From contig NZ_WLYK01000007.1 in NCBI RefSeq assembly GCF_009707545.1, positions 1 through 64,000 of the forward strand: a stretch of 64,000 bases of DNA, written 5' to 3'. Position numbers and translations under genes: made by a program. Under the pieces are notes generated by a model, which had not been told where the DNA came from, did no database searches, and saw only the letters and a list, made by a program, of their open reading frames with translations. The DNA is from Nakamurella alba (GTDB lineage: Bacteria; Actinomycetota; Actinomycetes; Mycobacteriales; Nakamurellaceae). Positions within the stretch are counted from its first letter, which is position 1. Every line of letters begins with the position of its first letter. Shown here in pieces: positions 39,807 through 63,828 of this stretch.

Positions 39807-39821
39807 TGGAACACTGTTCCA
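39807..39821. promoter_or_regulatory. IclR-type operator, perfect palindrome
   Basis: TGGAACACTGTTCCA is a perfect palindrome around a central C. It has the TGGAA-N5-TTCCA form of E. coli IclR sites. It ends directly at the ATG of the CitE-like gene and lies 45 bases before the divergent MFS start. Binding there would cover the start site of the CitE transcript. Confidence 0.75.
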
Positions 39822-40691
39822 ATGTCTGCCGCCGCCGCGTCCGAGCCGCTGAGCTACCTCTACGTCCCCGGTGATGCACCCGCCCGCTTCGCCGGCGCAC
39901 TGACCAAGGGCGCGGACGCGCTGGTGCTGGATCTCGAGGACGGGGTGGCGCCGGCGGCGAAGGAGGCCGCGGTCGCCGCAGTGGCCGCGTTCCTGCAGCA
40001 GCCCGGCGGCATCGGCGAGCCGCAGATCTGGGTGCGGATCGACCCGTCGCGGATCGGCACGGACCTGCCGCTGCTGGTCCACCCGCGGCTGGCCGGGCTG
40101 TTCGTGCCGAAACCGGAGGACCCGCGTGACCTGCTGGAACTCGACGTCCGGCTGTCCGGCCTGGAGTCCGCGGCCGGACTGGCCGAGGGCACCGTCGGCC
40201 TGGTCCCGCTGATCGAGTCGGCCGCCGGGCTGCTCGCGGTGGCGGCGATCGCCCGCTGCCCGCGGGTCCGCCGGCTCGGCATGGGCGAGGCGGACCTGCG
40301 CGCGCAGCTGCGCCTGCTGCCCGGCCCGGACGAGATCGAGCTGCTGCCCGCACGGTCCGCCGTGGTGGTCGCCGCCGCGGCGGCGGGCCTGCCCGCGCCG
40401 ATCGGATCGACCAGCACCGACTTCCGCGACCTGGACCGACTCGCCGTGACCACCGCCCGGTTGCGCGCGCTCGGCTTCGGCGCCCGGACCGCGATCCACC
40501 CGGCCCAGCTGCCGGTCCTGCGGGCCACCTTCACCCCGGACGAGGCCGCGATCGCCGCTGCGCGAGCGTTGGTCGACGAGTTCCGTCGCGCCGATGCGGA
40601 CGGTCGCGGTGCGGTGGTCGGCGCCGACGGCACGATGATCGACCTGGCCGTGGTGCGCGCGGCGCAGACCCTGCTCGGGCCGGGCCGCTGA
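39822..40691 (+). CDS. HpcH/HpaI aldolase/citrate lyase (CitE-like) family lyase
   Basis: 289 residues. The CitE-like barrel is shown by LYVPGDAPARFAGALTKGAD at the N-terminus, LVLDLEDGV with the conserved Glu-Asp at about residue 35, WVRIDP near 68, LVPLIESAAG near 127 with the metal-binding Glu, and GMGEADLRAQL near 155. Family members split 3-hydroxyacyl-CoA thioesters such as citramalyl-CoA, malyl-CoA or citryl-CoA into acyl-CoA and a keto acid. A CaiB CoA-transferase next door could supply the CoA ester. The start abuts the operator at 39807-39821, so the message may be almost leaderless. Confidence 0.88.
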   Translation: MSAAAASEPLSYLYVPGDAPARFAGALTKGADALVLDLEDGVAPAAKEAAVAAVAAFLQQPGGIGEPQIWVRIDPSRIGTDLPLLVHPRLAGLFVPKPEDPRDLLELDVRLSGLESAAGLAEGTVGLVPLIESAAGLLAVAAIARCPRVRRLGMGEADLRAQLRLLPGPDEIELLPARSAVVVAAAAAGLPAPIGSTSTDFRDLDRLAVTTARLRALGFGARTAIHPAQLPVLRATFTPDEAAIAAARALVDEFRRADADGRGAVVGADGTMIDLAVVRAAQTLLGPGR

Positions 40692-40711
40692 GCCGGTCGC
40701 GGGCACCGCGG

Positions 40712-41965
40712 TCAGCGGACGATCCCGGCGGCCCGCAGGTCCTCCACCGCTTCCCCGCTGATCCCGACCTCGGCGAGCACCGACGTGGTGTCCTCGCCGA
40801 TCGGCCGGCCGGTGTGCCGGACCCGGCCCGGCGTCTCCGACATCCGCCACAGCACGTTCTGCATCCGCAGTGGCCCGAGCTCGGGATCCTCGACGGTGGT
40901 GATCATCTCGCGGGCCGCCACCTGGGGGTCGTCCAGCAGATCGGACGGAAGGTAGATCGGTGCCGCGGCCGCACCGGCGGCGGCGAACGCGGCGATCACC
41001 TCGTCCCGGTCCCGGGCGGCGATCCACGGCACGACGTAGGCGTCGAGCTCATCGGCGTGCTCGGCCCGCTGCCGGCCGGTGGCGAACCACGGTTCCTCGG
41101 TCAACGCGCCGCCGCCGACCAGGTGCATGACCCGGGCCGCGATGGTGTCCGCACTGGTGGAGATGGCCACCCAGCTGTCGTCCCGGGTGCGGTAGACGTC
41201 GCGCGGGGAGTTGTTGACCGACCGGTTGCCGGTGCGCGGCTGGTCGGTGCCCAGCTGGTCGGCGATCAGCACACCGGGCCCGACGGCGGTCATCATCGGC
41301 TCCAGCAGCGAGAGGTCGATCACCTGACCGGTGCCGCCGCGGGCGTCCCGGTGGTAGAGCGCGGTCAGCACCGCCGAGGATCCGGCCATGGCCGCGATCG
41401 AGTCCGCCAGGCCGAAGGACGGCAGGGTGGGCGGGCCGTCGGGCTGCCCGGTCAGTGCGGCGAAACCGCTCATCGACTCGACCAGGGTGCCGAAGGCCGG
41501 CCGCGCGGAGTACGGCCCGGTCTGCCCGAAACCGGTGATGCGCAGCAGGATCAGGCCCGGGTTCTGCTCGGTGAGCCGGTCGTACCCCAGCCCCCAGCGC
41601 TCCAGCGTGCCGGGCCGGAAGTTCTCCACGACGACGTCCGCGGTGGCGGCCAGCGCCCGGAAGACCTCGGCACCCTCGGGCTTGCCGAGATCGAGGGCCA
41701 CTGTGCGCTTGTTGCGGGCGACCATCTTCCACCAGAGCTGCACGCCATCCTTGGCCGGACCGTGCCCGCGCATCCCGTCGCCGCGCTGCGGGTGCTCGAT
41801 CTTGATCACATCGGCGCCGAAGTCACCCAGGATCTGGCAGGCCAGCGGCCCGGCCAGGATGGTGGAGATGTCCAGCACCCGCAGGCCGGCCAGCGGTCCG
41901 TCGGACGGCACGGTCACCGCCGGCTCCGGGAGGGCGGGATCCTGCTGGGTGACGGACGACGACAT
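40712..41965 (-). CDS. CaiB/BaiF (class III) CoA-transferase
   Basis: 417 residues from ATG 41965, preceded by GAGGAG; the frame is open further upstream but without homology. Class III features are LRVLDISTILAGPLACQILGD at the start (in part), ADVIKIEHPQRGD, RNKRTVALDL (near 85), VVVENFRPGTLERWGLGY (near 112), and the active-site Asp in GTGQVIDLSLLE (near 220). The enzyme moves CoA from one acid to another, for instance from succinyl-CoA. It converges with the CitE-like gene (20 bases between stops) and shares its upstream region, with two island palindromes, with the cyclase gene. Confidence 0.9.
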   Translation of the reverse strand: MSSSVTQQDPALPEPAVTVPSDGPLAGLRVLDISTILAGPLACQILGDFGADVIKIEHPQRGDGMRGHGPAKDGVQLWWKMVARNKRTVALDLGKPEGAEVFRALAATADVVVENFRPGTLERWGLGYDRLTEQNPGLILLRITGFGQTGPYSARPAFGTLVESMSGFAALTGQPDGPPTLPSFGLADSIAAMAGSSAVLTALYHRDARGGTGQVIDLSLLEPMMTAVGPGVLIADQLGTDQPRTGNRSVNNSPRDVYRTRDDSWVAISTSADTIAARVMHLVGGGALTEEPWFATGRQRAEHADELDAYVVPWIAARDRDEVIAAFAAAGAAAAPIYLPSDLLDDPQVAAREMITTVEDPELGPLRMQNVLWRMSETPGRVRHTGRPIGEDTTSVLAEVGISGEAVEDLRAAGIVR

Positions 41966-42019
41966 GCGGGGCGCTCTCCTCGGGGATTCCTGGCGGCTGA
42001 TCGACCACCCGCGCAGGAT

Positions 42020-42034
42020 TGGAACGACGTTCCA
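42020..42034. promoter_or_regulatory. IclR-type operator, CaiB side
   Basis: TGGAACGACGTTCCA matches the island palindrome at all arm positions (TGGAAC and GTTCCA). It lies 54 bases before the CaiB ATG on the minus strand. The distance to the next site, centre to centre, is 75 bases, about seven helical turns, which would allow looping between the two. Confidence 0.72.
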
Positions 42035-42094
42035 CACAGTGGATCACAGACTGTTGTCCTGAGGGAAGCAAACCGCTAGCGTTGTCACAGAGAA

Positions 42095-42121
42095 CGGGAC
42101 ACTGTTCCAACAAGTGGAACA
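42095..42121. promoter_or_regulatory. Compound IclR-type operator, cyclase side
   Basis: CGGGACACTGTTCCA (42095-42109) is the same 15-mer with two arm changes. It overlaps a second inverted pair, TGTTCCA-ACAAG-TGGAACA (42103-42121). Together these give three half-sites in 27 bases, 77 bases before the GTG of the cyclase gene. Confidence 0.62.
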
Positions 42122-42198
42122 CGGGGGTGGAGCGGCGATCCCGTCGCCGCTGGCACCGCCCGCCCGACCCGGTCTCCCGCCCCCGAAGGAGTTCGTGC

Positions 42199-44959: not shown

Positions 44960-45250
44960 GGTGACCCGAAAGGCCCGGGCGACCCCCCACTCCACCTGGT
45001 CAGGGCCTCCCCGAACCCGACCACCACCAGTGGCGACCCGGGCACCCGGCCACCCCACACTGCACCTGGTCAGGGCGTCCCTGACCCCGACCACCACGAG
45101 CGGCGACCCGAATACCCGGCCATCCCACACTCGATCTGTTCAGGGACTCCCTGGACCGGCCTACCCCAGAGGCGACCGGACCGACAGCGTTTCCCCGCTG
45201 CCAACCCCTGATCAGGGGCGTCCTGGGCCGGACCACCCGAAGGGCGACCC
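44960..45250. repeat. Tandem ~70-bp repeats with internal hairpins
   Basis: Units begin with GGCGACCCG or a close variant at 44960, 45032, 45102, 45171 and 45243 (periods 72, 70, 69, 72). Each carries a CTGGTCAGGG-like core and a CGACCACC-like end; the fourth is the most diverged. In units 2 and 3 the core folds into a hairpin (45068-45086 and 45138-45156) with changed but still pairing bases. No protein frame crosses the array credibly. Confidence 0.75.
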
Positions 45251-45271
45251 GGCGTTCCAGCTGGAACGCCG
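45250..45271 (-). terminator. 22-bp perfect palindrome after the IclR gene
   Basis: CGGCGTTCCAG followed by CTGGAACGCCG is a perfect palindrome with a possible AGCT loop, 19 bases beyond the stop of the minus-strand IclR gene. It is a likely terminator. It also contains GTTCC and GGAAC half-sites in reversed order, so a binding role cannot be excluded. Confidence 0.55.
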
Positions 45272-45290: not shown

Positions 45291-46151
45291 TCAGGAGGGC
45301 CGGCGGAACCCGAGCGTCATGGAGAGCCGCTCGGTGGAGGCGAGGAGCTCGCTGACCGCGCGGTCCTTCTCCTCGGCGAAGCGGGCGGCGGGGCCGCACA
45401 CGCTGATCACCGCGGCGGGCTTGCCGGTGCGGTCACGGACGGGCGCGGCGACGGAGGCGGCGCCGGACTGGCGCTCCCCGGTGGAGTCCGCCCAGCCGCG
45501 TTCGCGGATCAGTTCCAGGTCGGCGAGCAGCTTCGGCACGTCGGTCACCGTGGACGGCGTGATCGGCGTCAGCGCCCCGCCTCCGGCACCCAGGTAGTCC
45601 TGGATCTCCTCGTCGGACAGGAACGCCAGGAACGCCTTGGACGACGCGCCGGCGTGCAGCGGGTAGGGCACCCCGATGGACACCGACATGATCATCTCGC
45701 GGGCCGGGGTGACCTGGTCCACGTACACCCGGGTCCCGCCGGCCCGGATGGACAGCGTCGCCGTCTCCCCGGTCGCGGCGGACAGCGCCGGCAGTTCGGC
45801 GGCGGCCGTGCGGCGCACGTCGAGCCGGTCCAGTCCGGCCAGGCCGAGCACGACGGCCATCGGGCCCAGGGAGTACTTGCGGGTGTTCTCGTCGAGTTCC
45901 ACCAGGTCACGGGTGCGCAGCGAGGCCAGCACCCGGTGCACGGCGGCCTTGGACAGGCCCAGCCCGGCGGCGATGTCGGTGATACCCAGCGAGGGGCCGT
46001 TGCCGCGGGTGAAGTAGAGGAGCACGTCCGCCGCCCGCTCGACCGCGGCCACGGTCTGGCTGCCCCGCTGCTCCTCCGGCGCCCCGGCGCCGACCGGGGT
46101 CAGCGGTCCGGTGTCGGTGCCGTTGGGGGCGATGCCGTCGACGGCGCTCAT
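45291..46151 (-). CDS. IclR-family transcription regulator of the island
   Basis: 286 residues. After a 30-residue flexible start, the winged HTH is at about 35-95 (ITDIAAGLGLSKAAVHRVLASL at 57-78, in part). The IclR ligand-binding domain (GAF-like) covers about 110-280, with GVPYPLHAGASSKAFLAFL near 165 and CGPAARFAEE near 255. Such proteins bind palindromes as dimers or tetramers and respond to pathway acids or aromatics. It is the last gene of the minus-strand operon, 91 bases after the second amidohydrolase. The only regulator in the island, it is the obvious candidate for the TGGAA-N5-TTCCA sites at 39807, 42020, 42095 and 63814. Confidence 0.92.
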   Translation of the reverse strand: MSAVDGIAPNGTDTGPLTPVGAGAPEEQRGSQTVAAVERAADVLLYFTRGNGPSLGITDIAAGLGLSKAAVHRVLASLRTRDLVELDENTRKYSLGPMAVVLGLAGLDRLDVRRTAAAELPALSAATGETATLSIRAGGTRVYVDQVTPAREMIMSVSIGVPYPLHAGASSKAFLAFLSDEEIQDYLGAGGGALTPITPSTVTDVPKLLADLELIRERGWADSTGERQSGAASVAAPVRDRTGKPAAVISVCGPAARFAEEKDRAVSELLASTERLSMTLGFRRPS

Positions 46152-46242: not shown

Positions 46243-47694
46243 CTACCACCGCCACGTCGACCCCCGGCCCAGGAAACGATCGCTGCCGGTGGCCGTGAGC
46301 AGCCGCGACTGCACCTCGTTGGCCTTGGTGACGGCCTCGCGGTGGTCGATCGCGGTGCTGACGCCGTTCCGCATCACCGTGCGGCCGCGCACCAGCACCC
46401 GCTCGATCACGTCCGGCCCCGGACCGCCGGCCCACACCAGGTTGGCGAGCAGCATGCCGGACGGGGCGAGCGTGGTGGCGTTGCCCAGGTCGATGAGCAG
46501 CAGGTCCGCGTCCTTCCCGACCTCGACCGAACCGATCCGGTCGGCGAGGCCCAGTGCCTGCGCGCCGCCCAGGGTACCCAGCTCGATCGCCTTCTCGGCG
46601 ATCCCGAAGAGGATCTCGTCACCGAACCGCCCGGCGTCGCCGCCGACCAGCTTGCGGGCCGAGTCGCCGATCCGCTGCGCCATCAGGTAGCCGCGCAGCG
46701 CCAGCCACATGTTGTGGCCGTAGGCGACGACCGGGCCGTCCAGGCCGAGGCCGATGGTGACGCCCGCGGCCTGGTAGGCCCGCGAGTCGAAGGTGACCAT
46801 GCCCAGCACCAGCTCCATGTCCGGCACCAGCGAGACCGCGGCGCCGGCGTCGGCCATCAGCTGCGCCTCGCCCTCGCGGATGCCCTGGGCGTGGATGGCG
46901 ATGGTGTTCGGCCCGAGCATGTCCTCCTTGGCCAGCCATTCGATGGAACCGCCGTGCCAGCCGCGCTTCTCGGCCAGGTACTTCTTGTCCATCATCGACG
47001 GCACGTGGATGTCGAACTGCTCGCCGTGCGCCACGGTCCAGTCGTAGAGGCGGTGCAGGTCGTCCGGCGTCACGTAGGTGATGCCGATCGAGGTGGCGGT
47101 CACCGACAGGGTCGGCGAGTTCCACTCGGCCGCCAGCCGGTCGGTCTCGGCCAGCCCGACGTCGACGCTCTCCCGCATCCCCGGCGGCACCGCGTTCTCG
47201 TCGTTGACCGTCAGCCGGGCCGCCCGCGCCCGCAGGCCGGCATCGGTGAGAGCACCGAGAACACCGTCCATGGAACGGGTGTCGACGTGGGTGAAGTGGT
47301 CGTCGGCGGTGGTGGTGACGCCGGAGCGGAGCAGGTCGAGCACCGGGGTCATCGCGGACCAGTAGGAGTCCTGCTGCCCGGCGGCGCCGGTCATCGGGTA
47401 GTAGAAGCCGAACAGTCGCTCCTCGAACCGGGTGCCCTCGGCCATCGACCGGATGCAGCCCTGCACCAGGTGGGTGTGCGTGTTGACCAGGCCCGGCATG
47501 ATCAGATGCCCGGCGCTGCCGGCGGTCTCGGCCGCGACGAACGGGGACTCCCCGCTGCCCACCCCGACGATGATGCCGGCCCGGATCGCCACCCAGCCGT
47601 CGGTGAGCACCCGGCGTTCCGGGTCGACGGTGAGCACGGTGCCGCGCAGCAGCAGGTCGCAGGTGTTCTCGGTCTGTTCGAGGTCGTCGGGCAT
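46243..47694 (-). CDS. Amidohydrolase (TRZ/ATZ-cytosine deaminase-like)
   Basis: 483 residues from ATG 47694 with an AGGAA site. The TIM-barrel metal motif is NTHTHL (His73, His75). Further ligands are probably the His in QFDIHVPS (near 228), the His in IAIHAQGI (near 264) and the Asp in GLGLDGPV (near 315). A small beta domain wraps both ends (DLLLRGTVLTVDPERRVL; VEVGKDADLLLIDL). The TRZ/ATZ branch removes amino, chloro or methylthio groups from ring carbons of triazines, pyrimidines or adenine compounds. It lies between the importer genes and the IclR gene. The paralogue at 58088 belongs to the same operon. The substrate is unknown. Confidence 0.88.
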   Translation of the reverse strand: MPDDLEQTENTCDLLLRGTVLTVDPERRVLTDGWVAIRAGIIVGVGSGESPFVAAETAGSAGHLIMPGLVNTHTHLVQGCIRSMAEGTRFEERLFGFYYPMTGAAGQQDSYWSAMTPVLDLLRSGVTTTADDHFTHVDTRSMDGVLGALTDAGLRARAARLTVNDENAVPPGMRESVDVGLAETDRLAAEWNSPTLSVTATSIGITYVTPDDLHRLYDWTVAHGEQFDIHVPSMMDKKYLAEKRGWHGGSIEWLAKEDMLGPNTIAIHAQGIREGEAQLMADAGAAVSLVPDMELVLGMVTFDSRAYQAAGVTIGLGLDGPVVAYGHNMWLALRGYLMAQRIGDSARKLVGGDAGRFGDEILFGIAEKAIELGTLGGAQALGLADRIGSVEVGKDADLLLIDLGNATTLAPSGMLLANLVWAGGPGPDVIERVLVRGRTVMRNGVSTAIDHREAVTKANEVQSRLLTATGSDRFLGRGSTWRW

Positions 47695-54002: not shown

Positions 54003-55742
54003 TCAGGCCTCGACCATGTACAGCGCGCTGTAGTACTGGTCGGTCTGGGCGTCGCACTGGGTCAGGCCACGCAGGCCCTTGCCGGCGGCGTCGATCCAGA
54101 CGTCACCGCAGGCGAAGAGGAAGCAGGACTTCTCCTGCATGATCTCGGCCATCCGGTCGAGGGTCTCGGCCCGCTCCGCCTCGTCGAACTGCGAGAGCTG
54201 CTTGGTGTACAGCTCGTCGAACTCGTCGTCGGTCATGTGCAGGCCGCCACCGTCGGTGGTGAAGTAGGTGTAGGCGCGGGCGGCGTCCATGTAGGGCCGG
54301 GTGAAGAGCCCGAAGTGGTAGATGTCCGGCCGCTGCTGGCGGTTGTAGAAGTAGTCCAGCTGCAGGGTGGAGTCGGTGAGCGCGGTGTAGTCCACCTGCA
54401 CGCCGAGCTGGGTGATGGCGTTGGCGAAGTACTCGCCGACCAGCCGGCGCACCGAGCCCGGGCCGGCGAAGGCGGAGGCCATGGTGATCGTGAACCGCGG
54501 GCTGCCGTCGGCCGGGGCCGGGAAGCCGGCCTCGTCCAGCATGGACTTGGCCTTCTCCGGGTCGTAGGCGAACTCGGACAGCGCGTCGTTGAACCCGGTC
54601 AGGCCGGGACCGATCAGCTGGCCGTTGTCGTTGTAGGTCGAGTTCTTCAGGACCTGCTCGACGAGTTCCTTCTTGTTGATGGCGTGCTGGAACGCCTGCC
54701 GCACGGTGGCGTTGCCCATCGGGCCGGTCTTCACCGCACCGTTCATGTCGACCTCGTCCATGAACGCGCCGAGGTCGTTGCCCTTGGTGATGTTGATCAG
54801 CGTGGCGCCGCCCGCGGTCAGCGGGGCGATGCTGGTCAGCGGCATGATGTTGACGTACTGCACGTCGCCGGCCAGCAGGCTGTTCATCTGCGACCCGGTG
54901 TCGGTCACCGACAGGAAGGTGATCTTCGTGAGGGTCGGTGTGCGCCAGGTGGTGTCGGCCTTCTCGACCACCGCGCGCTCGGTGGAGTACTCGACGAACT
55001 TGTACGGGCCGGAGCCGACCGGGGCGGCGGCGAAGGCCGCGTCCCGCGCCTCGGCATCGGCGCCCAGGCCCTCGTAGTAGGCCTTGGGGATGATGCCGAT
55101 CTGCGCCGCGCGCTTGGGCATCAGCAGGTCCGGCGACGAGGTGACGATGCGCACCGTGGTGTCGTCCACCGCGGTCGCCGACTTGAAGGTGCTGATCTGC
55201 GACTTGATCGCGTAGTTCTCGCCGGAGGCACGGGTCCAGCTGAACACCACGTCCTCGGCGGTCAGCGGGCTGCCGTCGTGGAACTTGACACCGTCGCGGA
55301 GGGTGAACTCCCAGGTGGTGTCGTCGATCTGCTCCCACTCGGTGGCCAGGAACGGCCGGGGCGCGCCGGTGTCCGGCTTGACGTCGGTGAGCATCTCGTA
55401 CATGTCGAACCGACGGGGGTAGCCGCCGGTGACGTGCGGGTCGATCGACGCCGGCAGGTTGCTGAGCGCGAAGCTGGCCTCCTGGGTCGGCGCGAGCTGC
55501 ACGCCGGACGGGACACCGGTCATCGGGCTGGTGTCGACCGAGACCAGCTCGCTGGGGGCGACGGAGCTGCTGGTGCCGGCGGCAGCGGTGCCGGAACCCG
55601 ATGCCCCGCCGGAGGTCCCGGTTCCGGTGGCGGCAGGCGTGTCGGTCGTGCCGCCGCAGGCGGCGAGCAGCAGGGTGCCGGTGGCGGCGGCGCCGAGCTG
55701 GAAGAAGCGGCGACGGTTGACCGCGCGCGCGTTGATCGTCAT
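54003..55742 (-). CDS. Tat-exported lipoprotein substrate-binding protein of the ABC importer
   Basis: 579 residues, family SBP_bac_5 (peptide/nickel type). The signal has a twin-arginine motif, RRRFFQLGAA (residues 10-19), and a lipobox LAAC with Cys29, so a folded lipoprotein is exported by Tat and anchored outside. A Gly/Thr linker (about 31-60) follows. The mature lobe has FALSNLPASIDPHVTGGYPRRF, DDTTWEFTLRDGVKFHDGSPLTAEDVVFSW (in part), the classic SBP_5 signature near 130-155. It lies before the transporter genes; the 124-base leader upstream is the largest internal gap of this operon section. Confidence 0.92.
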   Translation of the reverse strand: MTINARAVNRRRFFQLGAAATGTLLLAACGGTTDTPAATGTGTSGGASGSGTAAAGTSSSVAPSELVSVDTSPMTGVPSGVQLAPTQEASFALSNLPASIDPHVTGGYPRRFDMYEMLTDVKPDTGAPRPFLATEWEQIDDTTWEFTLRDGVKFHDGSPLTAEDVVFSWTRASGENYAIKSQISTFKSATAVDDTTVRIVTSSPDLLMPKRAAQIGIIPKAYYEGLGADAEARDAAFAAAPVGSGPYKFVEYSTERAVVEKADTTWRTPTLTKITFLSVTDTGSQMNSLLAGDVQYVNIMPLTSIAPLTAGGATLINITKGNDLGAFMDEVDMNGAVKTGPMGNATVRQAFQHAINKKELVEQVLKNSTYNDNGQLIGPGLTGFNDALSEFAYDPEKAKSMLDEAGFPAPADGSPRFTITMASAFAGPGSVRRLVGEYFANAITQLGVQVDYTALTDSTLQLDYFYNRQQRPDIYHFGLFTRPYMDAARAYTYFTTDGGGLHMTDDEFDELYTKQLSQFDEAERAETLDRMAEIMQEKSCFLFACGDVWIDAAGKGLRGLTQCDAQTDQYYSALYMVEA

Positions 55743-55866: not shown

Positions 55867-56565
55867 TCAGGCCGGGACCGGCTGCGCAGCGGGGTGCACG
55901 ACCGGCAGCAGGCCGGTCGAGCGGGACAGCGAGAGCAGTTGCAGGGCCAGCGCTGTCGGGTCGATGACGGCGACCCCGGCGGCCAGTCCCGGCGGGACGG
56001 CGACGGCGGAGCAGCCGTTGAAGACGGTGCCGATGCCCTCGGCGGCCCGGCGGACCGCGACGGCGGAGAGCCGACGCACCCACTCGGGTTCGTCCGAGAT
56101 CAGCTCGATACCACCGTCGATGACGTCGGTCTCGAGCAGCAGGTGCCCGAAGCCGTACTCACCGGCCTTGCGGTGCAGCTCGTCCGCGATCGGACGGTTC
56201 CGGGTGACCGCGGTGAACGGCTGCTGCAGCGCGGCCAGGTGCGACCCGACCAGCTGCAGGATGCCGAGCACCGGTACCTGCGACGCCGCCCCCGGGATCA
56301 CACCGGGGTCGAGCACGCAGTCCGGCAGCACGATGTCGGCGACGTCCGGGGTCACCGCCTCGGCCTGCGCACGCACGCAGGCGATCGAGGCCTCCACCGC
56401 GGCGGCGTCGTCCAGGGCCCGCGGGGCGTCCGGTCCGGTCAGCGGGTCGAGGTCGACCTGCAAGCCGGGGCCGGCCAGTTCCCGGTAACGGGCCTGGCGC
56501 GCACCGATCGCCTCGTCCGGCAGCCGGACGGGGGCGATCACCCGGAGCCGCAGCGGGCCGGTCAC
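55867..56565 (-). CDS. Asp/Glu/hydantoin racemase-family protein
   Basis: 232 residues with two cysteines in the expected places: VLPDC83VLDPG and VFNGC185SAVAV. A two-lobed fold with a Cys pair is the basis for racemisation in Asp/Glu/hydantoin racemases and for maleate isomerase. It overlaps the acyl-AMP ligase stop by 4 bases. In a route with amidohydrolases this could be a racemase for a hydantoin-like or amino acid intermediate, or a maleate cis-trans isomerase. The sequence does not decide between them. Confidence 0.85.
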   Translation of the reverse strand: MTGPLRLRVIAPVRLPDEAIGARQARYRELAGPGLQVDLDPLTGPDAPRALDDAAAVEASIACVRAQAEAVTPDVADIVLPDCVLDPGVIPGAASQVPVLGILQLVGSHLAALQQPFTAVTRNRPIADELHRKAGEYGFGHLLLETDVIDGGIELISDEPEWVRRLSAVAVRRAAEGIGTVFNGCSAVAVPPGLAAGVAVIDPTALALQLLSLSRSTGLLPVVHPAAQPVPA

Positions 56566-58103
56566 GCGCCGGCCCCCACGGTGGACTGCTCCGGGTCGGT
56601 CAGCGGGGACAGCCGGGACGACCCGGCCAGCAACAGCTCCCGCAGGTCACCGCGGTTGATCTTGCTGGACGAGTTGCGCGGCATGATGTCGATGACCGAC
56701 ACCGACGGCACCACCGGGGCCCGGCCGGCCACGGCGTCGCGCACCGCGGCGGCGTCGATCACCGCGCCGGCCGCCGGCTGCACGACCACGGCCAGGCCGT
56801 GTCCGTCGTCCAGCACGACGACCTCGTCGACGCCGGGCAGGTTGCCGACCAGCGTCTCCAGCTCGTACGGGAAGACGTACTTGCCGGCGACGACCAACGC
56901 GTCCTTCCAGCGGCCGAGCACCGACAGTGTGCCGTCCGGGTTCCAGTCGCCGACGTCGCCGGTGTAGAACCAGCCGTCGGCGGCGGTCCCGACGTTCGAC
57001 TGGCCCTCCTCGGTCGGCAGCACGTAGCCCGGGCTGACGGCGACGCCGCGCACCCGGATCTCACCGCGGGAGCCCGCATCGGCGACCGCACCGGAGAACG
57101 GCGCGACCTCGACGTTCGCCAGCGGCGCCGGGGTGCCGGCGACGAAGTCCGCACCGTAGGCCGGCATCGAGCTGGTCAGCGTGGCGATGGTGCTGGTCTC
57201 GGTCAGCCCGTAGCTGTTGACCACCTCACCACGGTCGCCGACCAGGGCGCCGAGGGCGTCCATGATCGGGCCCGGCGTCCGCTGGCCGGTCGAGACCGCC
57301 ACCCGCAGACCACGTTCCGGCAGCAGGTCGGCGACGCCGGAGGCGAGCAGCGACCGCCAGCCCGGGGCCTGCAGCGGCAGGATGGTGACCCCGTCGCGGG
57401 AGGCGAGCTCGATGGTCTCCGGGGAGACCTCGTCCAGCGCGACGATGCAGCCGCCCATCAGGATCATGCAGCGCAGCGCGCCGATGGCCACGTTGATGTT
57501 GGTCGGGCTGGCGCAGATCCACCGCTCGGAGTGCCGGGTGCGCATGCAGAGGTTCCGGTTCACCGCGTCCCAGAAGTCCGCGCCGACGCTGCGCACCATG
57601 CCCTTGGGCACACCGGTGGTGCCGGTCGAGTACTGGATCGCGGACACCTCGTCATCGGTGCGCTCCACCCAGTTGCGGGTGGCGTCCGGGGTGCCGGACA
57701 CCTGCGCCAGGACCGCCGGTCCGTCCACGGTGAACAGCGGGATGCCCGTCGCCGCAGCGGCTTCCGGCGCGCCGGTCAGCTCCGGGCCGCAGAACAGCTC
57801 GGTGATGCCGGCGGTGCGGATGGCGCCGACCAGGTGCTCGCCGAGGCCGATGCCGAGCAGCACCGGGCGCAGCCCGGCCGCCTGCGCGGCCAGGTACAGC
57901 TGGATGCCGATGGTGCCGCGGTAGACGCCGATGCCGATCGCCTCGCCGGGCACCCGGCCACGGGCGCGGAAACCGGCCACCAGCTCGTCCATCCGGACAC
58001 CCAGGTCGCCCCAGGTGAGCCGGCCCTCGGACGGGCTGTCGATGGCCGGGGCGTCGGCCAGCCGGTGGGCGTTGGCGGCGACCCGGGTCAGGAGGTCGGG
58101 CAC
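56562..58103 (-). CDS. Acyl-CoA synthetase/AMP-dependent ligase (class I adenylate-forming)
   Basis: 513 residues. The core motifs are IQYSTGTTGVPKGM (A3, near 175), NSYGLTETST (A5, near 303), GWFYTGDVGDWNPDG (A7, near 385), GRWKDALVVAGKYVFPYELE (A8, near 403) and the Lys of A10 in SSSKINRGDLRELL near 480. It adenylates a carboxylic acid and passes it to CoA or another thiol. The acid pocket has no recognised code. Start and stop overlap both neighbours, so it is tightly coupled to an amidohydrolase and the racemase. It probably activates the acid left after hydrolysis. Confidence 0.9.
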   Translation of the reverse strand: MPDLLTRVAANAHRLADAPAIDSPSEGRLTWGDLGVRMDELVAGFRARGRVPGEAIGIGVYRGTIGIQLYLAAQAAGLRPVLLGIGLGEHLVGAIRTAGITELFCGPELTGAPEAAAATGIPLFTVDGPAVLAQVSGTPDATRNWVERTDDEVSAIQYSTGTTGVPKGMVRSVGADFWDAVNRNLCMRTRHSERWICASPTNINVAIGALRCMILMGGCIVALDEVSPETIELASRDGVTILPLQAPGWRSLLASGVADLLPERGLRVAVSTGQRTPGPIMDALGALVGDRGEVVNSYGLTETSTIATLTSSMPAYGADFVAGTPAPLANVEVAPFSGAVADAGSRGEIRVRGVAVSPGYVLPTEEGQSNVGTAADGWFYTGDVGDWNPDGTLSVLGRWKDALVVAGKYVFPYELETLVGNLPGVDEVVVLDDGHGLAVVVQPAAGAVIDAAAVRDAVAGRAPVVPSVSVIDIMPRNSSSKINRGDLRELLLAGSSRLSPLTDPEQSTVGAGA

Positions 58104-59536
58104 GGCACGGCTCCGTTCCGTCGGGAAGTGCTGGGCAGCACCTCGGTGAGCAGGCCCTCGTCCACCGCGGTGGACCAGATCTCCTGCAGGGCGGTGTCCG
58201 CGGCCGCACGCAGGGCGGCGATGTCGGTACCCACGACGGCCCCGTCGCGGACCCGGATCTCGCCGTCCACGACGACCAGCCGGACGTCACGGCCGCTGGC
58301 GTACAGCGCGACCGTCTGGATCGGGTCGAACACCGGCCAGGTGGCGGCGTCGGCCAGCGAGATGCCGACCAGGTCGGCCAGGGCACCGGCCTCGATGACG
58401 CCGAGGTCGGGGCGGTGCAGTGCCCGGCCGCCGCCGGCGGTGGCGATCTCCAGCACCTCGGCCGAGGCCGGGGTGTGCAGCCGACCGGTGGCGATCTTGC
58501 CGAGAGTCGTGGCCAGGGTGAGTTCCTCGACCATGTCGCAGCTGAAGCCGTCGGTACCGAGGGACACCTTGATGCCGGCGTCCCGGAAGACCTGGAACGG
58601 TGAGGTGAGCGCCTCCTTCGCCTTGCGCGAGGCGCAGTGGGCGATGGTGATGCCCGAGCTCGCGGCGAGCTCGTAGTCCTCGACCGGCAGGTAGGTGGCG
58701 TGCGCGGCGATGAGCCGGTCGTCGGCCAGCCCGGCCCGCTCCAGCACCCGCAGCGGGGTGGTGCCGTACTTGCGCTGCGTCTCGGCCAGCTCGCCCGGTG
58801 CCTGGCACAGGTGGGTGGTGACCAGGCAGTCCAGCCGCTGCGCGGCCTCGGCGACGCCCTGCAGCACCGAGAACTCGTCGGTGTGCACGGCCGCTGGGCC
58901 GAGCAGCATGCGGATCCGGCCGTCGGCGGCGCCGTCCCAGGTCGCGAACATCTCCTCCAGCTCGGCGAGCTCGGAGTTCTGCTTGTCACCGCTGATGCTG
59001 TCCGGCCGCTCCGCGCTGCCGTCGCCGGCGGTGCGGTCCAGCTGGCCCAGCCGGTGCGTGACGTCCAGCGGGATGGTCGGCCCGGTCCAGGTCCGGATGC
59101 CGCTGCGGGCGGCGATGTCCAGGTAGCCGTGGATGTCGGTGGAGGCGTGGTTGACGATGGTGGTGGTGCCGCTGCGCAGCATGCCCAGCGTGTCCCACTC
59201 CATGACGGCCCGGAAGCTCTCCCGGAACCGCTCCTGGTACGCCCATCGCCACAGCCGGGACAGCGGGACGTAGAACGGCATGCCGTCCGGCAGCGGGTAG
59301 TCCTCGGAGATGCCGCGGCCGACCGGTCCGGCACCCACGTGGGTGTGGGTGTTCACCAGGCCGGGCATCAGCAGCTGGTCGGCCAGCTCCACCACCTCGG
59401 CGTCGATCCCGGACAGGTCGGCGCCGGCGTCGAGCACCGCGGTGATGCGGTTGTCCTCGACGAGCACGCTCGCGCCCTCCCGGATCCCGTCCGGGGTGAG
59501 CACCCACTTCGGCCGGAACAGCCGGCGGTCGCCCAT
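58088..59536 (-). CDS. Amidohydrolase, TRZ/ATZ-type, second paralogue
   Basis: 482 residues. Metal ligands are NTHTHV (His64, His66), VTTHLCQAPGE (near 237), the His in LIAAHATYL (near 275) and the Asp in SLGTDGFSCD (near 328). Here the standard GTDG signature is intact, in contrast to the paralogue at 46243 that reads GLGLDG. The TIM barrel is flanked by an N- and C-terminal beta domain (VEDNRITAVLDAGADL; RLVVVDGEIRVRDGAVV). The enzymes of this branch remove amino or chloro groups from N-heterocycles or deaminate adenine-type side chains. It is followed with overlap by the acyl-AMP ligase gene and preceded by the VOC gene. Confidence 0.88.
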   Translation of the reverse strand: MGDRRLFRPKWVLTPDGIREGASVLVEDNRITAVLDAGADLSGIDAEVVELADQLLMPGLVNTHTHVGAGPVGRGISEDYPLPDGMPFYVPLSRLWRWAYQERFRESFRAVMEWDTLGMLRSGTTTIVNHASTDIHGYLDIAARSGIRTWTGPTIPLDVTHRLGQLDRTAGDGSAERPDSISGDKQNSELAELEEMFATWDGAADGRIRMLLGPAAVHTDEFSVLQGVAEAAQRLDCLVTTHLCQAPGELAETQRKYGTTPLRVLERAGLADDRLIAAHATYLPVEDYELAASSGITIAHCASRKAKEALTSPFQVFRDAGIKVSLGTDGFSCDMVEELTLATTLGKIATGRLHTPASAEVLEIATAGGGRALHRPDLGVIEAGALADLVGISLADAATWPVFDPIQTVALYASGRDVRLVVVDGEIRVRDGAVVGTDIAALRAAADTALQEIWSTAVDEGLLTEVLPSTSRRNGAVPCPTS

Positions 59537-59537
59537 C

Positions 59538-59903
59538 TCAGCCCTCGCGCAGGACGAAGACGTTGCCGTCGAGGTCCTTGAACGTGGCCCACCAGCCGAA
59601 CCCGGCCTTGATCGGGGCGGTGACGATCTCGACGCCCTTGGCGGTCAGCTCCTCGACGGTGGCGAGCACGTCGTCGCAGATGAAGGTGATGCCGGAGAAG
59701 AACTCGACCTCGTCGAAGATCGGCCAGTTGAGCACCATCATCGCGCCGCCGTCGACACCGCGGGTCTCCAGCCAGCGCTTGGGCAGGAAGTCCGGCATCG
59801 GGGTGTCCGAGATGGCCTCGAGTCCGACCTGCTCGGTCCAGAACGCCTTCGCCTTGTCCTGGTCGCGGACCTTGATGTTGATGCCGCGGATGGCCTTGAT
59901 CAC
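59538..59903 (-). CDS. VOC-family (glyoxalase-like) enzyme
   Basis: 121 residues starting at GTG 59903, after an AGAGGA site. The VOC halves are IRGINIKVRDQDKAKAFWTEQVGLE and IVTAPIKAGFGWWATFKDLDGNVFVL (each shown in part). The C-terminal Glu/Asp pattern fits metal-binding VOC enzymes. It lies 1 base before the amidohydrolase start. It may open a ring, isomerise an intermediate or take part in dioxygen chemistry, but it lacks a partner of the extradiol dioxygenase size. Confidence 0.85.
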   Translation of the reverse strand: MIKAIRGINIKVRDQDKAKAFWTEQVGLEAISDTPMPDFLPKRWLETRGVDGGAMMVLNWPIFDEVEFFSGITFICDDVLATVEELTAKGVEIVTAPIKAGFGWWATFKDLDGNVFVLREG

Positions 59904-60000: not shown

Positions 60001-61365
60001 TCAGCCCTGCGGGCAGTGCACGATGATGTCGGCGGCGACCGTGCAGCCGGGCACCTCGAGCGATCCCGGCGGGACCTCGAAGAAGCCGGCGGCCGGCAGG
60101 CCGTCGGTGAACGGCTCCGGCCAGACCTCGAAAAGCGTGGCCAGGTCACCGAAGTCGGTGAGGTACAGGTCGGCCTTGACGGTGTTCTCGATCGAGGTGC
60201 CCGCTGCGGCGCAGATCTTCGCGACGTCCTCGTGGATGGCCCGCACCTGGTCCACCAGCGCGCGCCGGGTGAACGGCAGTCCGTCCTGCGCGGCCACCGC
60301 CGCCGGCAGCGGACCGTCGGCCGACCGGCCGAGCTGGGTGGACAGGAACAGGAACTCGCCGGACCGGATGGCCTGCACCTGGTGGCCGATGGCCGGCAAC
60401 GCGTCCGGCGCGGTGATGACCTCGCGGTCGCCACCGGCGTCGCGGCGGGCGACGATCACGAAGATCTCGACGTTGCCGCCCTTGACCCCGCCGATGCCGC
60501 TGACCGGGACGATGGCCCGGGCCGGCGGGCTGTCCGGCCAGTTCTGCTGCCAGACCTCCTCCACGGCGGGAAGGTTCCGCATGCCCTCCGGGGTCAGGTA
60601 CAGCACCACCTTGACCACGTCGGCCCAGTCGGCGCCGGCCGACTCCATGGTGATACGGATCTGCCGGAGCGTCTCCGCGGTCTCCGCCGCGACCTGGTTG
60701 CCGTACCAGATGTGCTGCGGCACGCGAGCATTCGGGTGCAGGCCGGACTCGAAGTCGGTGGGGATGAAGCCGGCACTGAACAGCAGTGGGCCGGCCTCCA
60801 TGCCGACCGAGTAGCCGCCCAGCGGGTTGTGCACGTCGTGCGCGTAGGCCCGCTTGCTGATCCCGGAGTCGTCCAGCAGCGAGACCAGCTGGATCTCGAT
60901 CAGCGAGTCCTTGGCCACCAGCCGGTCCACCGGCAGCAGGCAGCTGGCCGGGCGGTCGTCGATCAGGAACTCGTTGCGGCCCTGGATGTACGCGTGCGCG
61001 ACGTCCCGCCAGGCCTCCCAGTGCTCGACGTATGCGTTCTGCGCGGAGTCGTCGCGGACGGCGTCACCGCGGAAGGTCGGCTGCCACTGGTTGATCGAGA
61101 CACCGGCCTCCAGCGAGGATCCCACCGCACCGAGGGCGGCGGACAGCCGGCGGTAGGTCTCCCGGACCTGCAGCTTGACCGGGTGCCCGGTGGTGCGCGG
61201 CAGGCCCGGGGACACCGAGGCGGCCGGTGCGACGCCGGTGGCGAAATCGACCGCGCTCATCGAGGCGGTGAAGGCGTACGGCCCGGCGGTGACCACCGAG
61301 CTGCTCGGGTACCACTCGGGGAAGTCCGCCCCGGGGACGTTGTGCGCGACGCGCTTGCTGGACAC
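60001..61365 (-). CDS. Triple RidA/YjgF-domain fusion protein
   Basis: 454 residues from GTG 61365, with AGGAG nine bases before; a longer ATG start at 61389 lacks such a site. Three RidA-fold repeats follow each other. Domain 1 (about 10-150) contains YTAGPYAFTASM-like start and EIQLVSLL end. Domain 2 (about 165-300) contains GPLLFSAGFIPTD, SPPARAIVPVSG with the key Arg, and NVEIFVIVA with the following Glu. Domain 3 (about 310-452) contains SGEFLFLSTQLG and ends AADIIVHC. RidA hydrolyses reactive enamines and imines from pyridoxal enzymes. Only the middle domain keeps the Arg. It fits a pathway with deaminases. Confidence 0.85.
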   Translation of the reverse strand: MSSKRVAHNVPGADFPEWYPSSSVVTAGPYAFTASMSAVDFATGVAPAASVSPGLPRTTGHPVKLQVRETYRRLSAALGAVGSSLEAGVSINQWQPTFRGDAVRDDSAQNAYVEHWEAWRDVAHAYIQGRNEFLIDDRPASCLLPVDRLVAKDSLIEIQLVSLLDDSGISKRAYAHDVHNPLGGYSVGMEAGPLLFSAGFIPTDFESGLHPNARVPQHIWYGNQVAAETAETLRQIRITMESAGADWADVVKVVLYLTPEGMRNLPAVEEVWQQNWPDSPPARAIVPVSGIGGVKGGNVEIFVIVARRDAGGDREVITAPDALPAIGHQVQAIRSGEFLFLSTQLGRSADGPLPAAVAAQDGLPFTRRALVDQVRAIHEDVAKICAAAGTSIENTVKADLYLTDFGDLATLFEVWPEPFTDGLPAAGFFEVPPGSLEVPGCTVAADIIVHCPQG

Positions 61366-61499
61366 CTGTGCTGGCTCCTGGGATCTCATGTGCGGATGTG
61401 GTGCTGGTACGGCATATGGCGGGGTGGTACAGGGTGGTGCGGGCACGGCGGCATCACCCCGGGAGCGGCGGGCACTCCCGAGGTCGGCTGCGCCAGGCG

Positions 61500-62294
61500 T
61501 TACAGCGCCTGGCCGCCGTCGACGAACAAGGTCTGGCCGATCATCATCTGGTTGCGCGGGCTGAGCAGGAAGGCGACCGGCAGCACCAGCTCCTCGGTCT
61601 GCATGATCCGGCCGCTGGGGATCCCGGCCACGACACCGGCGGAGAAGTCCGGGTTCTCGAACAGCGCCCGGTTGACGTCGGTGAGGGTGGCGGTCGGGGC
61701 GATCGCGTTGACCCGGATGCCCTTGGCCACCCACTCCTGGGTCAGCGTCTGCGCCAGCATGCTCACCGCGGCCTTCGAGGCGTTGTACGGGGCCCAGTCG
61801 TTGAAGCCGCGCTTGGCGAAGCTGGAGCTGGTCAGCACCATGGTGCCGCCGCCGGTCATCCGGCGGGCGGCCGTGCGCGCGGTGAGGAAGACACCGCTGA
61901 TGTTGACGTCCAGCACCGACCGGAAGTCCTCGGCCGGCATGTCCAGCGCCGGCTGGACCGCGGCGATACCGGCATTGGCGACGACACAGTCGATGCCACC
62001 GAAGGTCTCGACCGTCCGGTCCATGGCGGCGGCCAGCTGGTCCTCGTCGGTCACATCGGCACCGACGGCCAGGAACGTGCTGCCCTGTTCCTTGGCGGCC
62101 AGGCCGACGGCCTCCAGCTTGTCGGTGCGGCGGGCGACGCCGACCACGTTCATGCCCATCCGGCCCAGACCGAGGGCGACGGCCGCGCCGATGCCGCTGT
62201 TGGCGCCGGTGATGACCACGGTACGGCCGGCCAGGTCCAGGGCGCTGCCCAGGGCCGGGGACAGCTCGGCGGGAACGGTGGAGGTCACGACCAC
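61500..62294 (-). CDS. Short-chain dehydrogenase/reductase of the island
   Basis: 264 residues. The coenzyme loop is VVITGANSGIGAAVALGLG (about 26-44), NAGIAAV near 109, the catalytic Ser in MVLTSSSFAKRG near 152, the Y-x3-K pair in PYNASKAAVS near 167-171, and the end QTLFVDGGQAL, as in acetoacetyl-CoA reductase-type SDRs. Its 5' end overlaps the small coiled-coil gene by 10 bases. It is the only oxidoreductase in the operon. The natural substrate is unknown. Confidence 0.88.
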   Translation of the reverse strand: MVVTSTVPAELSPALGSALDLAGRTVVITGANSGIGAAVALGLGRMGMNVVGVARRTDKLEAVGLAAKEQGSTFLAVGADVTDEDQLAAAMDRTVETFGGIDCVVANAGIAAVQPALDMPAEDFRSVLDVNISGVFLTARTAARRMTGGGTMVLTSSSFAKRGFNDWAPYNASKAAVSMLAQTLTQEWVAKGIRVNAIAPTATLTDVNRALFENPDFSAGVVAGIPSGRIMQTEELVLPVAFLLSPRNQMMIGQTLFVDGGQAL

Positions 62295-62551
62295 TCCTGC
62301 CGGGCCAGCGGGGCGCCGAGGACGCGGCGGACCAGACGGGACCGGTCCTTGGCGAGCCGGGCGTGCGCCTTCTCGTCGGGCTCGAACCCGTCAATCTCGG
62401 CGACCTTCACGACATCCTTGGCCTCGAGCAGCTCCTCGAGCACGACCACCCGGTCGCGCAGGATCCACAGCTCCTCGGTGAGGGACTCGACCATGCGGGC
62501 GACGTCCTCCACCGTGGCCTGGTGCAGGTAACTCGGCGCGGTGCGCACCAT
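62285..62551 (-). CDS. Small coiled-coil protein of unknown function
   Basis: 88 residues: VEDVARMVESLTEELWILRDRVVVLEELLEAKDVV (in part) forms heptads over about residues 14-48, followed by a basic half ending in LGAPLARQEWS. It has no domain I recognise. It overlaps the SDR start by 10 bases and lies 61 bases after the methyltransferase gene. Small coiled-coil proteins in operons often hold enzymes together or make trimers or dimers; here this is only a guess. Confidence 0.75.
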   Translation of the reverse strand: MVRTAPSYLHQATVEDVARMVESLTEELWILRDRVVVLEELLEAKDVVKVAEIDGFEPDEKAHARLAKDRSRLVRRVLGAPLARQEWS

Positions 62552-62612
62552 ACCGGGACTTCCTTCTCTGTCTGTGTTGTCGCTATTTCTGGCAGAACTG
62601 CGAAGCGTCGGG

Positions 62613-63677
62613 TCAGGCGGGCTTGACGCCGCGGGTCACCCACGGGTAGTTGCCCGGGCCGACGCCGTACTCCTCGACCTCGACGAAGCCGGCGTCGCGG
62701 AAGATCTGGCCGCGGTCGATGAGGAGCGCGCCGCGCCAGAACGGCTCGCAGCGGTGGTCGGTCTCCCAGTCAAGGACGACGGATCGGAACAGCGACTCCT
62801 GCTGGGTGTACGGGGCGACGTCGCCGATGATCAGCTCGCCGCCCGGTTCCAGCACCCGGAAGGCCTCGCCGATGATCTGCTTGGCGACCGGGACCGGGAC
62901 CTCGTGCAGCAGGATGAAGGCGGCGACCATGTCGAAGGTGCCCTCGTCGTAGGGCAGCTCCTCGGCCGCGGCCTGGCGCAGGTCCCACTTCCAGCCGTTG
63001 CGCGCCGCGATCAGCTTGGCGTGCCGCAGCTCGCTCTCGCCCAGGTCGACGCCGTGGATCTGCGCGTCCGGCCAGGCGCGCTGCAGCGCGGAGGCCATGC
63101 GCCCGGTGCCGACGCCGAGCTCCAGGATGTTGCGATAGGAGTCCTTGCGGCCCTCCTTGGCGGTGACGTAGCGCTGGTCGGCGAAGCTCTCGCCCGGCTT
63201 GACCGCGCCGACACCGCCGGTGGCGAAGAGCAGGTCGTAGATGTAGTCGTGGATCATGAAGCCCATCCGCGGGTGGCCCTCCCAGCCGCCGGGCGCGAGG
63301 TGGAACTCCGTGTCGGTCCAGTACTTCGGTGCCGCGACGGACTCGTCCAGCACGAGAGTGCCGCCGGCGTCGGCCTGGTCGGCGTACTCGGCCTCGATCG
63401 CCGTGACCCCGTCCTCGTAGGCCTCCAGCGCGGCGACGTACTGGTGCTCACCGGAGACCCGCGTGTAGAAGCGGTCCCAGGCGAAGGCAGCGGAGGGCTC
63501 CAGCAGCTCGTAGCCCTTCTTCAGCTTCGCCTGCGTGTTCTCCGGCAGCTCGACGCTCTCCAGGGCGGTGGCCAGGTCGGCCGCGGCCGCCTTCTGCAGC
63601 TCACGCCCGGACCAGCCGGCCATCTCTGCCAGGAAGGCGAAGTGAGCGCGTCCGCGCTGGGTGAGACCTGTCTTCAT
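62613..63677 (-). CDS. SAM-dependent methyltransferase, class I, with long N-terminal region
   Basis: 354 residues from ATG 63677, with GGAGAAGGG before it. The N-terminal 185 residues are helical (MAGWSGRELQKAAAADLATAL near the start) and unlike common methyltransferases. The class I core follows: motif I is LELGVGTGRMASAL (about 187), then VDLGESELRHAKLI, FDMVAAFILLHEV and FRVLEPGGELIIGDV. The acceptor is unknown. It is the first gene of the long minus-strand operon; the island palindrome at 63814-63828 lies 137 bases upstream. Confidence 0.86.
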   Translation of the reverse strand: MKTGLTQRGRAHFAFLAEMAGWSGRELQKAAAADLATALESVELPENTQAKLKKGYELLEPSAAFAWDRFYTRVSGEHQYVAALEAYEDGVTAIEAEYADQADAGGTLVLDESVAAPKYWTDTEFHLAPGGWEGHPRMGFMIHDYIYDLLFATGGVGAVKPGESFADQRYVTAKEGRKDSYRNILELGVGTGRMASALQRAWPDAQIHGVDLGESELRHAKLIAARNGWKWDLRQAAAEELPYDEGTFDMVAAFILLHEVPVPVAKQIIGEAFRVLEPGGELIIGDVAPYTQQESLFRSVVLDWETDHRCEPFWRGALLIDRGQIFRDAGFVEVEEYGVGPGNYPWVTRGVKPA

Positions 63678-63813
63678 GGATCGACCCTTCTCCACGACCG
63701 TGGCCCGGTGTGCCCGGGTTGGTGCTCGGTGCTTGCTGGTGGTGCTGGTCCCGCCGCCCGGCCTCGGTGCCGGTCGACAGACTTTCCGATTCGTCCGGAT
63801 TCGTTCCCGCCTG

Positions 63814-63828
63814 TGGAACGCTGTTCCA
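63814..63828. promoter_or_regulatory. IclR-type operator in front of the long operon
   Basis: TGGAACGCTGTTCCA is the same island palindrome with one arm mismatch (perfect over TGGAAC and GTTCCA apart from the central bases). It lies 137 bases before the methyltransferase ATG on the minus strand, within the AT-rich stretch 63770-63840, the likely promoter of the operon running from 63677 to 45291. Confidence 0.7.

What the first reader, a model, noticed from the sequence alone, without database searches (positions are those of the whole stretch)
39807..63828. One palindrome motif defines an IclR regulon over 24 kb
Seen: TGGAAC-N3-GTTCCA or close variants at 39807-39821, 42020-42034, 42095-42109 (two arm changes, overlapping a TGTTCCA/TGGAACA pair) and 63814-63828. 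Each sits in a promoter gap: CitE-like/MFS, CaiB/cyclase, and the head of the long minus-strand operon. Known: E. coli IclR binds TGGAA-N5-TTCCA-type sites. Inferred: the only regulator inside the block, the IclR protein at 45291-46151, binds all of them. This would join the three transcription units into a single regulon, even though no enzyme assignment alone would have shown it.
Basis: partly seen in the sequence, partly recalled or inferred. Interest (0 to 1): 0.72.

Follow-up and report, generated by a model that had tools for sequence, protein, structure and literature searches.

The report
IclR three-box operators unite catabolic island
Four matching DNA switches in front of separate gene groups are very probably the landing sites of one IclR-type regulator, so a scattered set of breakdown genes is run as one unit; this kind of switch is already known, while this particular gene set was not found in the papers searched.

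Summary
The exact 15-mer TGGAAC-N3-GTTCCA occurs three times in the 6.05-Mb genome, all inside this block (reversed control 0). Of 35 spacing pairs tried, only this one is enriched around 80 relatives of the IclR (52-67% identical). A matrix from relatives alone scores the window sites 30.3-32.5 bits, against 12.6 for the next independent place on the 93-kb contig. A strict three-box pattern is absent from all 16 congeners searched, which lack a close ortholog. Three congeners keep CaiB, cyclase, PrpD, hydantoinase and CitE as one gene run; in four Nocardiopsis loci the operator sits 29 bp before the methyltransferase. Three-box IclR operators are described (PMC8222616): new member of a known kind. 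Binding, repression, inducer and substrate are inferred. A weak possible fifth site lies just outside the window.

The parts
39796..39821 (+). Operator A, three boxes, in the gap MFS(-)/CitE(+); its last base is the one before the CitE ATG
   Evidence: 0 mismatches to the three-box pattern; 32.5 bits with the relatives-only matrix
42020..42045 (-). Operator B, three boxes, on the CaiB side of the gap CaiB(-)/cyclase(+)
   Evidence: 1 mismatch; 30.3 bits
42095..42120 (-). Operator C, three boxes, on the cyclase side of the same gap
   Evidence: 1 mismatch; 30.3 bits
63803..63828 (+). Operator D, three boxes, before the methyltransferase operon (which reads on the minus strand)
   Evidence: 0 mismatches; 30.6 bits
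45291..46151 (-). IclR-family regulator, proposed to bind operators A-D; last gene of the minus-strand run
   Evidence: PF01614 135.7 bits and PF09339 48.0 bits, both over cut-off
38563..39762 (-). MFS transporter
   Evidence: PF07690, 127.1 bits
39822..40691 (+). CitE/HpcH-type lyase
   Evidence: PF03328, 112 bits
40712..41965 (-). CaiB-type (family III) CoA-transferase
   Evidence: PF02515, 404.8 bits
42199..43041 (+). Cyclase-family metal-dependent hydrolase
   Evidence: PF04199, 93.9 bits
43044..44525 (+). MmgE/PrpD-family enzyme
   Evidence: PF03972 173.4 bits and PF19305 109.7 bits
46243..63677 (-). Minus-strand run before iclR, 3' to 5': amidohydrolase 46243-47694; ABC ATPases 47759-49858; permeases 49954-50880 and 50880-51932; alpha/beta hydrolases 51929-52729 and 52726-53448; CMD protein 53450-54001; solute-binding protein 54003-55742; Asp/Glu racemase-like 55867-56565; AMP-dependent ligase 56562-58103; amidohydrolase 58088-59536; glyoxalase-like 59538-59903; Rid-domain protein 60001-61365; SDR 61500-62294; small ORF 62285-62551 (no Pfam match); methyltransferase 62613-63677
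   Evidence: Pfam; gene ends. That it is one transcript is inferred

Best explanation
The four sites are three-box operators of the IclR protein encoded at 45291-46151. The middle box is shared between a pair with N3 spacing and a pair with N5 spacing, so the boxes alternate in direction and the outer two form a direct repeat with a 20-bp period (about two DNA turns). The protein, as dimer or tetramer, most likely sits over the promoter or transcription start and represses five transcription units: MFS, CitE, CaiB, cyclase-PrpD and the methyltransferase/ABC/amidohydrolase operon. A pathway intermediate would release it. As iclR is the last gene of that operon it probably controls itself through operator D. 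SHOWN by sequence: the sites, their spacing, genome-wide uniqueness, conservation together with this IclR subfamily, and position in promoter gaps. INFERRED: binding, repression rather than activation, inducer, read-through to iclR.
For: Three exact 15-mers in the genome, all here. Three-box pattern: the four window sites are the genome's four best. Around 80 relatives of the IclR only spacing 5/3 of 35 tried is enriched. A matrix built from 82 sites in 49 of those 80 loci, window not used, ranks the four sites first on the 93-kb contig. At 13 bits, leave-one-out, 268 hits against 1 in reversed sequence, in 74 of 80 loci. Unseeded dyad count: GTTCC-N7-GGAAC ranks first, 34 of 80 loci, control 0. 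Strict pattern: 29 hits in 14 genomes holding the ortholog, 20 of 29 within 25 kb of it, a zone of at most 0.93% of the sequence; 0 hits in 16 congeners. 81 of 82 sites lie outside called genes. 31 of 72 sites with a called start downstream are centred 15-35 bp before it. The recognition helix SKAAVHR was not seen in the ten other own-genome IclR candidates whose helix could be aligned. Operator 29 bp before the methyltransferase in 4 of 4 Nocardiopsis loci.
Against: No binding or expression data. 31 of 80 loci have no site at <=3 mismatches and 6 of 80 none at 13 bits. 9 of the 29 strict hits are more than 25 kb from an ortholog, and 3 of 14 genomes have no strict hit. Only two of the four window sites match the strict pattern exactly. 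Promoter position by itself supports CaiB (25 of 41) and the methyltransferase (4 of 4), but CitE (8 of 32) and cyclase (13 of 44) are near the background of 255 of 1182 called genes. The window's iclR has no operator in its own 91-bp upstream gap (no hit of 7 bits or more), whereas 43 of 80 relatives have one. The congeners' IclR relatives (41-43%) serve the same core genes without a good three-box site. The consensus promoter scan found none.
Confidence: 0.87

Rival explanations
1. The same operators and the same IclR, but acting as an activator or with a dual role rather than as a repressor.
For: PcaU needs its third box for binding (PMC8222616 section 13; that PcaU activates is recalled). 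BhcR, the nearest NCBIfam model (165.8 bits, below its 350 cut-off), is proposed to have a dual role (PMC11323563, passages seen).
Against: In relatives 31 of 72 sites are centred 15-35 bp before a called start, and operator A touches the CitE start codon, which suits blocking more than activation.
Confidence: 0.2
2. Another regulator encoded elsewhere in the genome binds the sites, and the IclR next door is a bystander.
For: The genome has 45 matches to PF09339, and only 14 of the 44 others were fetched.
Against: Operator and this IclR subfamily travel together: present around its relatives, absent from 16 congeners. Ten aligned helices of other candidates differ. When the helix changes Ser67 to Thr67 the box changes from mostly GTTCC to mostly GTTTC.
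Confidence: 0.06
3. Chance palindromes or RNA hairpins (terminators, leaders) unrelated to a regulator.
For: In the window alone the excess is modest: 4 against a mean of 1.03.
Against: Genome-wide uniqueness, fixed three-box spacing and conservation. No Rfam match in 38000-64000 at gathering thresholds.
Confidence: 0.01

Closest known systems
Three-box IclR-family operators (Suvorova and Gelfand 2021, PMC8222616; PcaU is the experimental precedent they cite)
   Same: Three boxes of alternating direction, one pair of the GTTYC...GRAAC type (group 1) and one of the TGRAAC...GTTYCA type (group 2); predicted there for 32 orthologous groups
BhcR of Paracoccus denitrificans (beta-hydroxyaspartate cycle)
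   Same: Best NCBIfam match of the IclR protein, 165.8 bits
   Different: Below the 350-bit cut-off; none of the genes examined in the block was recognised as a bhc gene
PcaR/PcaU/PobR subfamily
   Same: IclR fold; PcaU has a three-box site (PMC8222616)
   Different: 120.5 bits against a cut-off of 284.75; half-sites differ (PobR TTGTCCGATSATCGGACAR in Table 1)
E. coli IclR (acetate/glyoxylate bypass)
   Same: TGGAA/TTCCA half-sites (TGGAAATNATTTCCA) and IclR fold
   Different: Two-box site in that table; 91.9 bits against a 380-bit cut-off

Membership tests
IclR family of transcription factors | HTH_IclR and IclR_C domains over Pfam cut-off | tested here: met
   PF09339 48.0 (cut-off 22) and PF01614 135.7 (cut-off 24)
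Three-box IclR operator class | Boxes of alternating direction, one group-1 pair and one group-2 pair | tested here: met
   Four window sites; spacing 5/3 alone enriched among 35 pairs in 80 relative loci; definition from PMC8222616
Three-box IclR operator class | The IclR protein binds the DNA and needs the third box | not testable with these tools
   Needs gel shift, footprint or box mutants
BhcR | NF045644 score of at least 350 bits | tested here: not met
   165.8 bits
PcaR/PcaU/PobR | TIGR02431 score of at least 284.75 bits | tested here: not met
   120.5 bits
E. coli-type IclR repressor | NF008601 score of at least 380 bits | tested here: not met
   91.9 bits

The most novel reading that the evidence does not exclude
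One operator code joins two modules that occur apart elsewhere: the CaiB-cyclase-PrpD-hydantoinase-CitE core (one gene run in three congeners) and a methyltransferase/dipeptide-type ABC module (Nocardiopsis). Here the core is split around the second module over about 28 kb, and a degenerate four-box site at C7 65379-65414 brings the hydantoinase and a flavoprotein into the same regulon. The whole would be an undescribed actinobacterial route, perhaps for a cyclic amide or N-heterocycle, ending in CoA activation and C-C cleavage of a dicarboxylate.
Probability: 0.5. Interest if true: 0.55.

Novelty: new member of a known kind. Interest (0 to 1): 0.42.

Why it matters
It turns a list of separately annotated enzymes into one regulated set, which no single enzyme assignment would show, and gives an operator with exact spacing for an IclR subfamily seen in 80 loci, nearly all actinobacterial by record title (best 80 of 212 kept). 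That makes an uncharacterised pathway testable: the shared regulator says which genes to assay together, and its inducer would point to the substrate.

Tried and rejected
The bare 15-mer at <=2 mismatches was rejected as a discriminator: 82 genome places against 40 for the control. A first look at 15 ortholog neighbourhoods gave 19 palindrome hits at <=2 mismatches against 3 control (my notebook says 20, the recount is 19). The first genome-contig scan with the single protein found no relative; the scan with alignment A2 found them. A2 holds the window protein and 14 of the 15 outside matches; L021 was left out because its frame holds a stop. Alignment A1 had five rows on the wrong strand and was discarded. 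The seed sites of the matrix were picked by likeness to the window consensus, which is partly circular; one search was run without that seed. The 268-to-1 count counts overlapping registers and both strands. Some of the 80 loci are not independent (several per genus; L102 and L117 overlap on one contig, so one site counts twice). L025-L039 come largely from the same records as some of L040-L119 and are left out of the 80-locus counts. The gene caller is home-made; it called no start downstream of 10 of 82 sites. The promoter scan gave nothing; the minus-strand terminator-like matches lie inside called genes or beyond iclR, so they do not argue against one long transcript, but this is weak. Rfam gave nothing at gathering thresholds. 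Three own-genome places with 2 mismatches to the three-box pattern (C1:515108, C1:1028685, C8:219487) were fetched and not pursued beyond an ORF list for one. Paper searches. Five exact site cores gave one unrelated human-genetics paper; the gene combination gave none or one unrelated paper; the four papers were seen as a listing only. Papers opened: PMC8222616 (abstract and outline, passages, sections 13, 14, 15, 22) and PMC11323563 (passages). Structure prediction was not run because it would not decide DNA specificity.
Full report
OBSERVATION. The exact palindrome TGGAAC-N3-GTTCCA is at 39807, 42020 and 63814, with a 2-mismatch version at 42095. In the window alone the excess is moderate (4 against a shuffle mean of 1.03). 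In the whole 6,051,944-base genome the exact pattern occurs at these three places only, with none for the reversed control, against about 0.09 expected from composition. With 2 mismatches allowed it is unremarkable (82 places, control 40).

THE FULL OPERATOR. Read outwards, every site has a third box: GTTCC(A)-N5-(T)GGAAC-N3-GTTCC(A). Searched genome-wide with 16 fixed bases and up to 3 mismatches, the four window sites are the four best places (0, 0, 1, 1 mismatches), followed by three places with 2; in all 26 forward and 37 reverse matches, control 6 and 6.

LINK TO THE IclR PROTEIN. No close ortholog exists in the 16 congeners searched; three have a relative at 42-43% over the matched part. 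In the class, 14 of 394 genomes (own genome included) have a match at E <= 1e-55; the 15 matches outside the own genome are 51-64% identical. A second scan gave 80 named loci at 52-67% (the best 80 of 212), among them Nonomuraea, Microtetraspora, Actinomadura, Catellatospora, Actinoplanes and Nocardiopsis. Of 35 spacing pairs tried over these 1.46 Mb only 5/3 stands out: 8, 31 and 47 hits at 1, 2 and 3 mismatches, against at most 0, 3 and 11 for any other. After removing overlaps, 49 of 80 loci have 82 sites at <=3 mismatches; 81 of the 82 lie outside called genes, where the outside fraction is 0.24. A matrix from these sites, window not included, gives the window sites 32.5, 30.6, 30.3 and 30.3 bits. 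The further hits above 12.6 bits on the 93-kb contig overlap them, and the next independent place scores 12.6. Leave-one-out at 13 bits: 268 hits against 1 in reversed sequence, in 74 of 80 loci. To avoid the circular seed, all palindromic 5-mer dyads with spacers 0-20 in intergenic DNA were counted: GTTCC-N7-GGAAC ranks first (34 of 80 loci, control 0), GGAAC-N3-GTTCC is in 19 (control 0), and the direct repeat GTTCC-N15-GTTCC in 29 (control 0).

CO-OCCURRENCE. The strict pattern GTTYC-N7-GRAAC-N3-GTTYC has 29 hits in the 14 genomes with an ortholog; 11 of the 14 have one or more, control 0. 20 of 29 are within 25 kb of an ortholog, a zone of at most 0.93% of the sequence; 9 are not. Without the own genome it is 18 of 27. 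In 17 genomes of the genus the pattern occurs only in the window's genome, twice; operators B and C miss the strict pattern by one letter. Of the 44 other PF09339 matches in the own genome the 14 strongest were fetched: nine align well with the window IclR at 26-36% identity, a tenth weakly, and none of these ten has the SKAAVHR helix; three gave no aligned helix and one no row. In the 13 loci whose helix has Thr in place of Ser67, the fourth letter of the boxes is T 54 times and C 8 times (A 3, G 7); in the Ser67 loci C 370, T 138, A 58, G 7. Ser67 appears to line up with TtgV Pro46, a position with identified correlations in PMC8222616 (section 22); that mapping is mine, by eye. The rows are related by descent, so the count is descriptive.

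WHICH GENES BELONG. In the window the operators face MFS, CitE, CaiB, cyclase-PrpD and the methyltransferase operon (Pfam). In the 80 loci, relatives of PrpD are in 49, cyclase in 44, CaiB in 43, hydantoinase in 40, CitE in 34, flavoprotein in 6 and methyltransferase in 4. An operator of 13 bits or more lies between -60 and 300 bp upstream of the projected start for CaiB in 25 of 41, cyclase 13 of 44, CitE 8 of 32, hydantoinase 6 of 40, PrpD 0 of 48 (it follows cyclase in the window), flavoprotein 2 of 2, IclR 43 of 80 and methyltransferase 4 of 4, the last always at 29 bp; for all called genes it is 255 of 1182. So CitE, cyclase and hydantoinase are not above background by promoter position alone. 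Gene order is the stronger argument for them. Three of 16 congeners (G008, G012, G014) have a PrpD relative at 59-62%, and in all three CaiB, cyclase, PrpD, hydantoinase and CitE form one run (40-70% identical). An IclR relative (41-43%) stands directly before the run in two and about 14 kb away in the third. In the window's genome the set is split: CitE, CaiB and cyclase-PrpD on the left, the hydantoinase at C7 65484-66968 on the right, outside the window, with the methyltransferase/ABC run between. The congeners' stretches have no good three-box site (best 12.7, 9.0 and 11.3 bits in three stretches, none of 6 or more in the fourth), so this operator goes with the closer IclR subfamily.

POSSIBLE FIFTH SITE. 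At C7 65379-65414, between the flavoprotein and the divergent hydantoinase, stand four degenerate boxes at spacings 5/3/5 (12.6 and 11.3 bits in the two registers). That is no better than the best places in the congeners, so membership is open.

MECHANISM. Most likely repression by covering the promoter or start region: in relatives 31 of 72 sites with a called start downstream are centred 15-35 bp before it, and operator A ends at the base before the CitE ATG. For operator D a TTGACC/CAGTCT-like pair precedes the site on the minus strand by eye, but the consensus scan found no promoter, so this is weak. Three boxes allow two alternative dimer arrangements on one site, as proposed in PMC8222616 (section 13). 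iclR has no operator of its own in the 91-bp gap before it and would be reached by read-through from operator D, some 17.5 kb away; this is inferred. The inducer is unknown.

SUBSTRATE (speculative). A hydantoinase/allantoinase-like enzyme (216.5 of 357.85 bits needed), other amidohydrolases, a Rid-domain protein and a racemase-like protein suggest a nitrogen-containing ring or cyclic amide. The PrpD-family enzyme is nearest among solved structures to IRG1 (cis-aconitate decarboxylase) and IDS-epimerase. CitE is nearest to the itaconate-pathway lyase RipC, far below its cut-off (120 of 375 bits). The flavoprotein matches the tricarballylate dehydrogenase TcuA at 126 of 369 bits, behind flavocytochrome c. 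An itaconate- or aconitate-like intermediate is possible and untested.

VERDICT. The operator architecture is a described class, so this is a new member of a known kind, with a gene set for which searches found no paper.

Noticed in passing
Contig C7 65379-65414, just right of the window (L004 5379-5414): Four degenerate boxes at spacings 5/3/5 between a flavoprotein gene (-) and a hydantoinase-like gene (+); 12.6 and 11.3 bits. Possible fifth operator.
   Followed up: partly
45252-45271: A 20-bp perfect inverted repeat GGCGTTCCAGCTGGAACGCC just 3' of iclR; it holds GTTCCA and TGGAAC but at a spacing that does not fit the operator (seen).
   Followed up: no
44970-45200: By eye, an imperfect repeat of a unit of roughly 80 bases in the non-coding stretch between PrpD and iclR; no tandem-repeat program was run.
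   Followed up: no
L137, L139, L140 (congeners G008, G012, G014): The core genes form one run with an IclR relative of 41-43%; before the run in L139 and L140 stands a GTTYCG-N5-CGAAAC two-box palindrome without a good third box, perhaps an ancestral or alternative operator.
   Followed up: partly
L058, L067, L068 (Actinomadura): Five or six operators per locus around genes mostly without a match to the window's, including in these or related loci a branched-chain-type ABC transporter and a glyoxalase-type protein: a larger regulon of the same subfamily.
   Followed up: no
L040-L119, recognition helix of the IclR relatives: Ser67 to Thr67 goes with a change of the box from GTTCC to GTTTC, a candidate specificity switch; the number of independent changes was not worked out.
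   Followed up: partly
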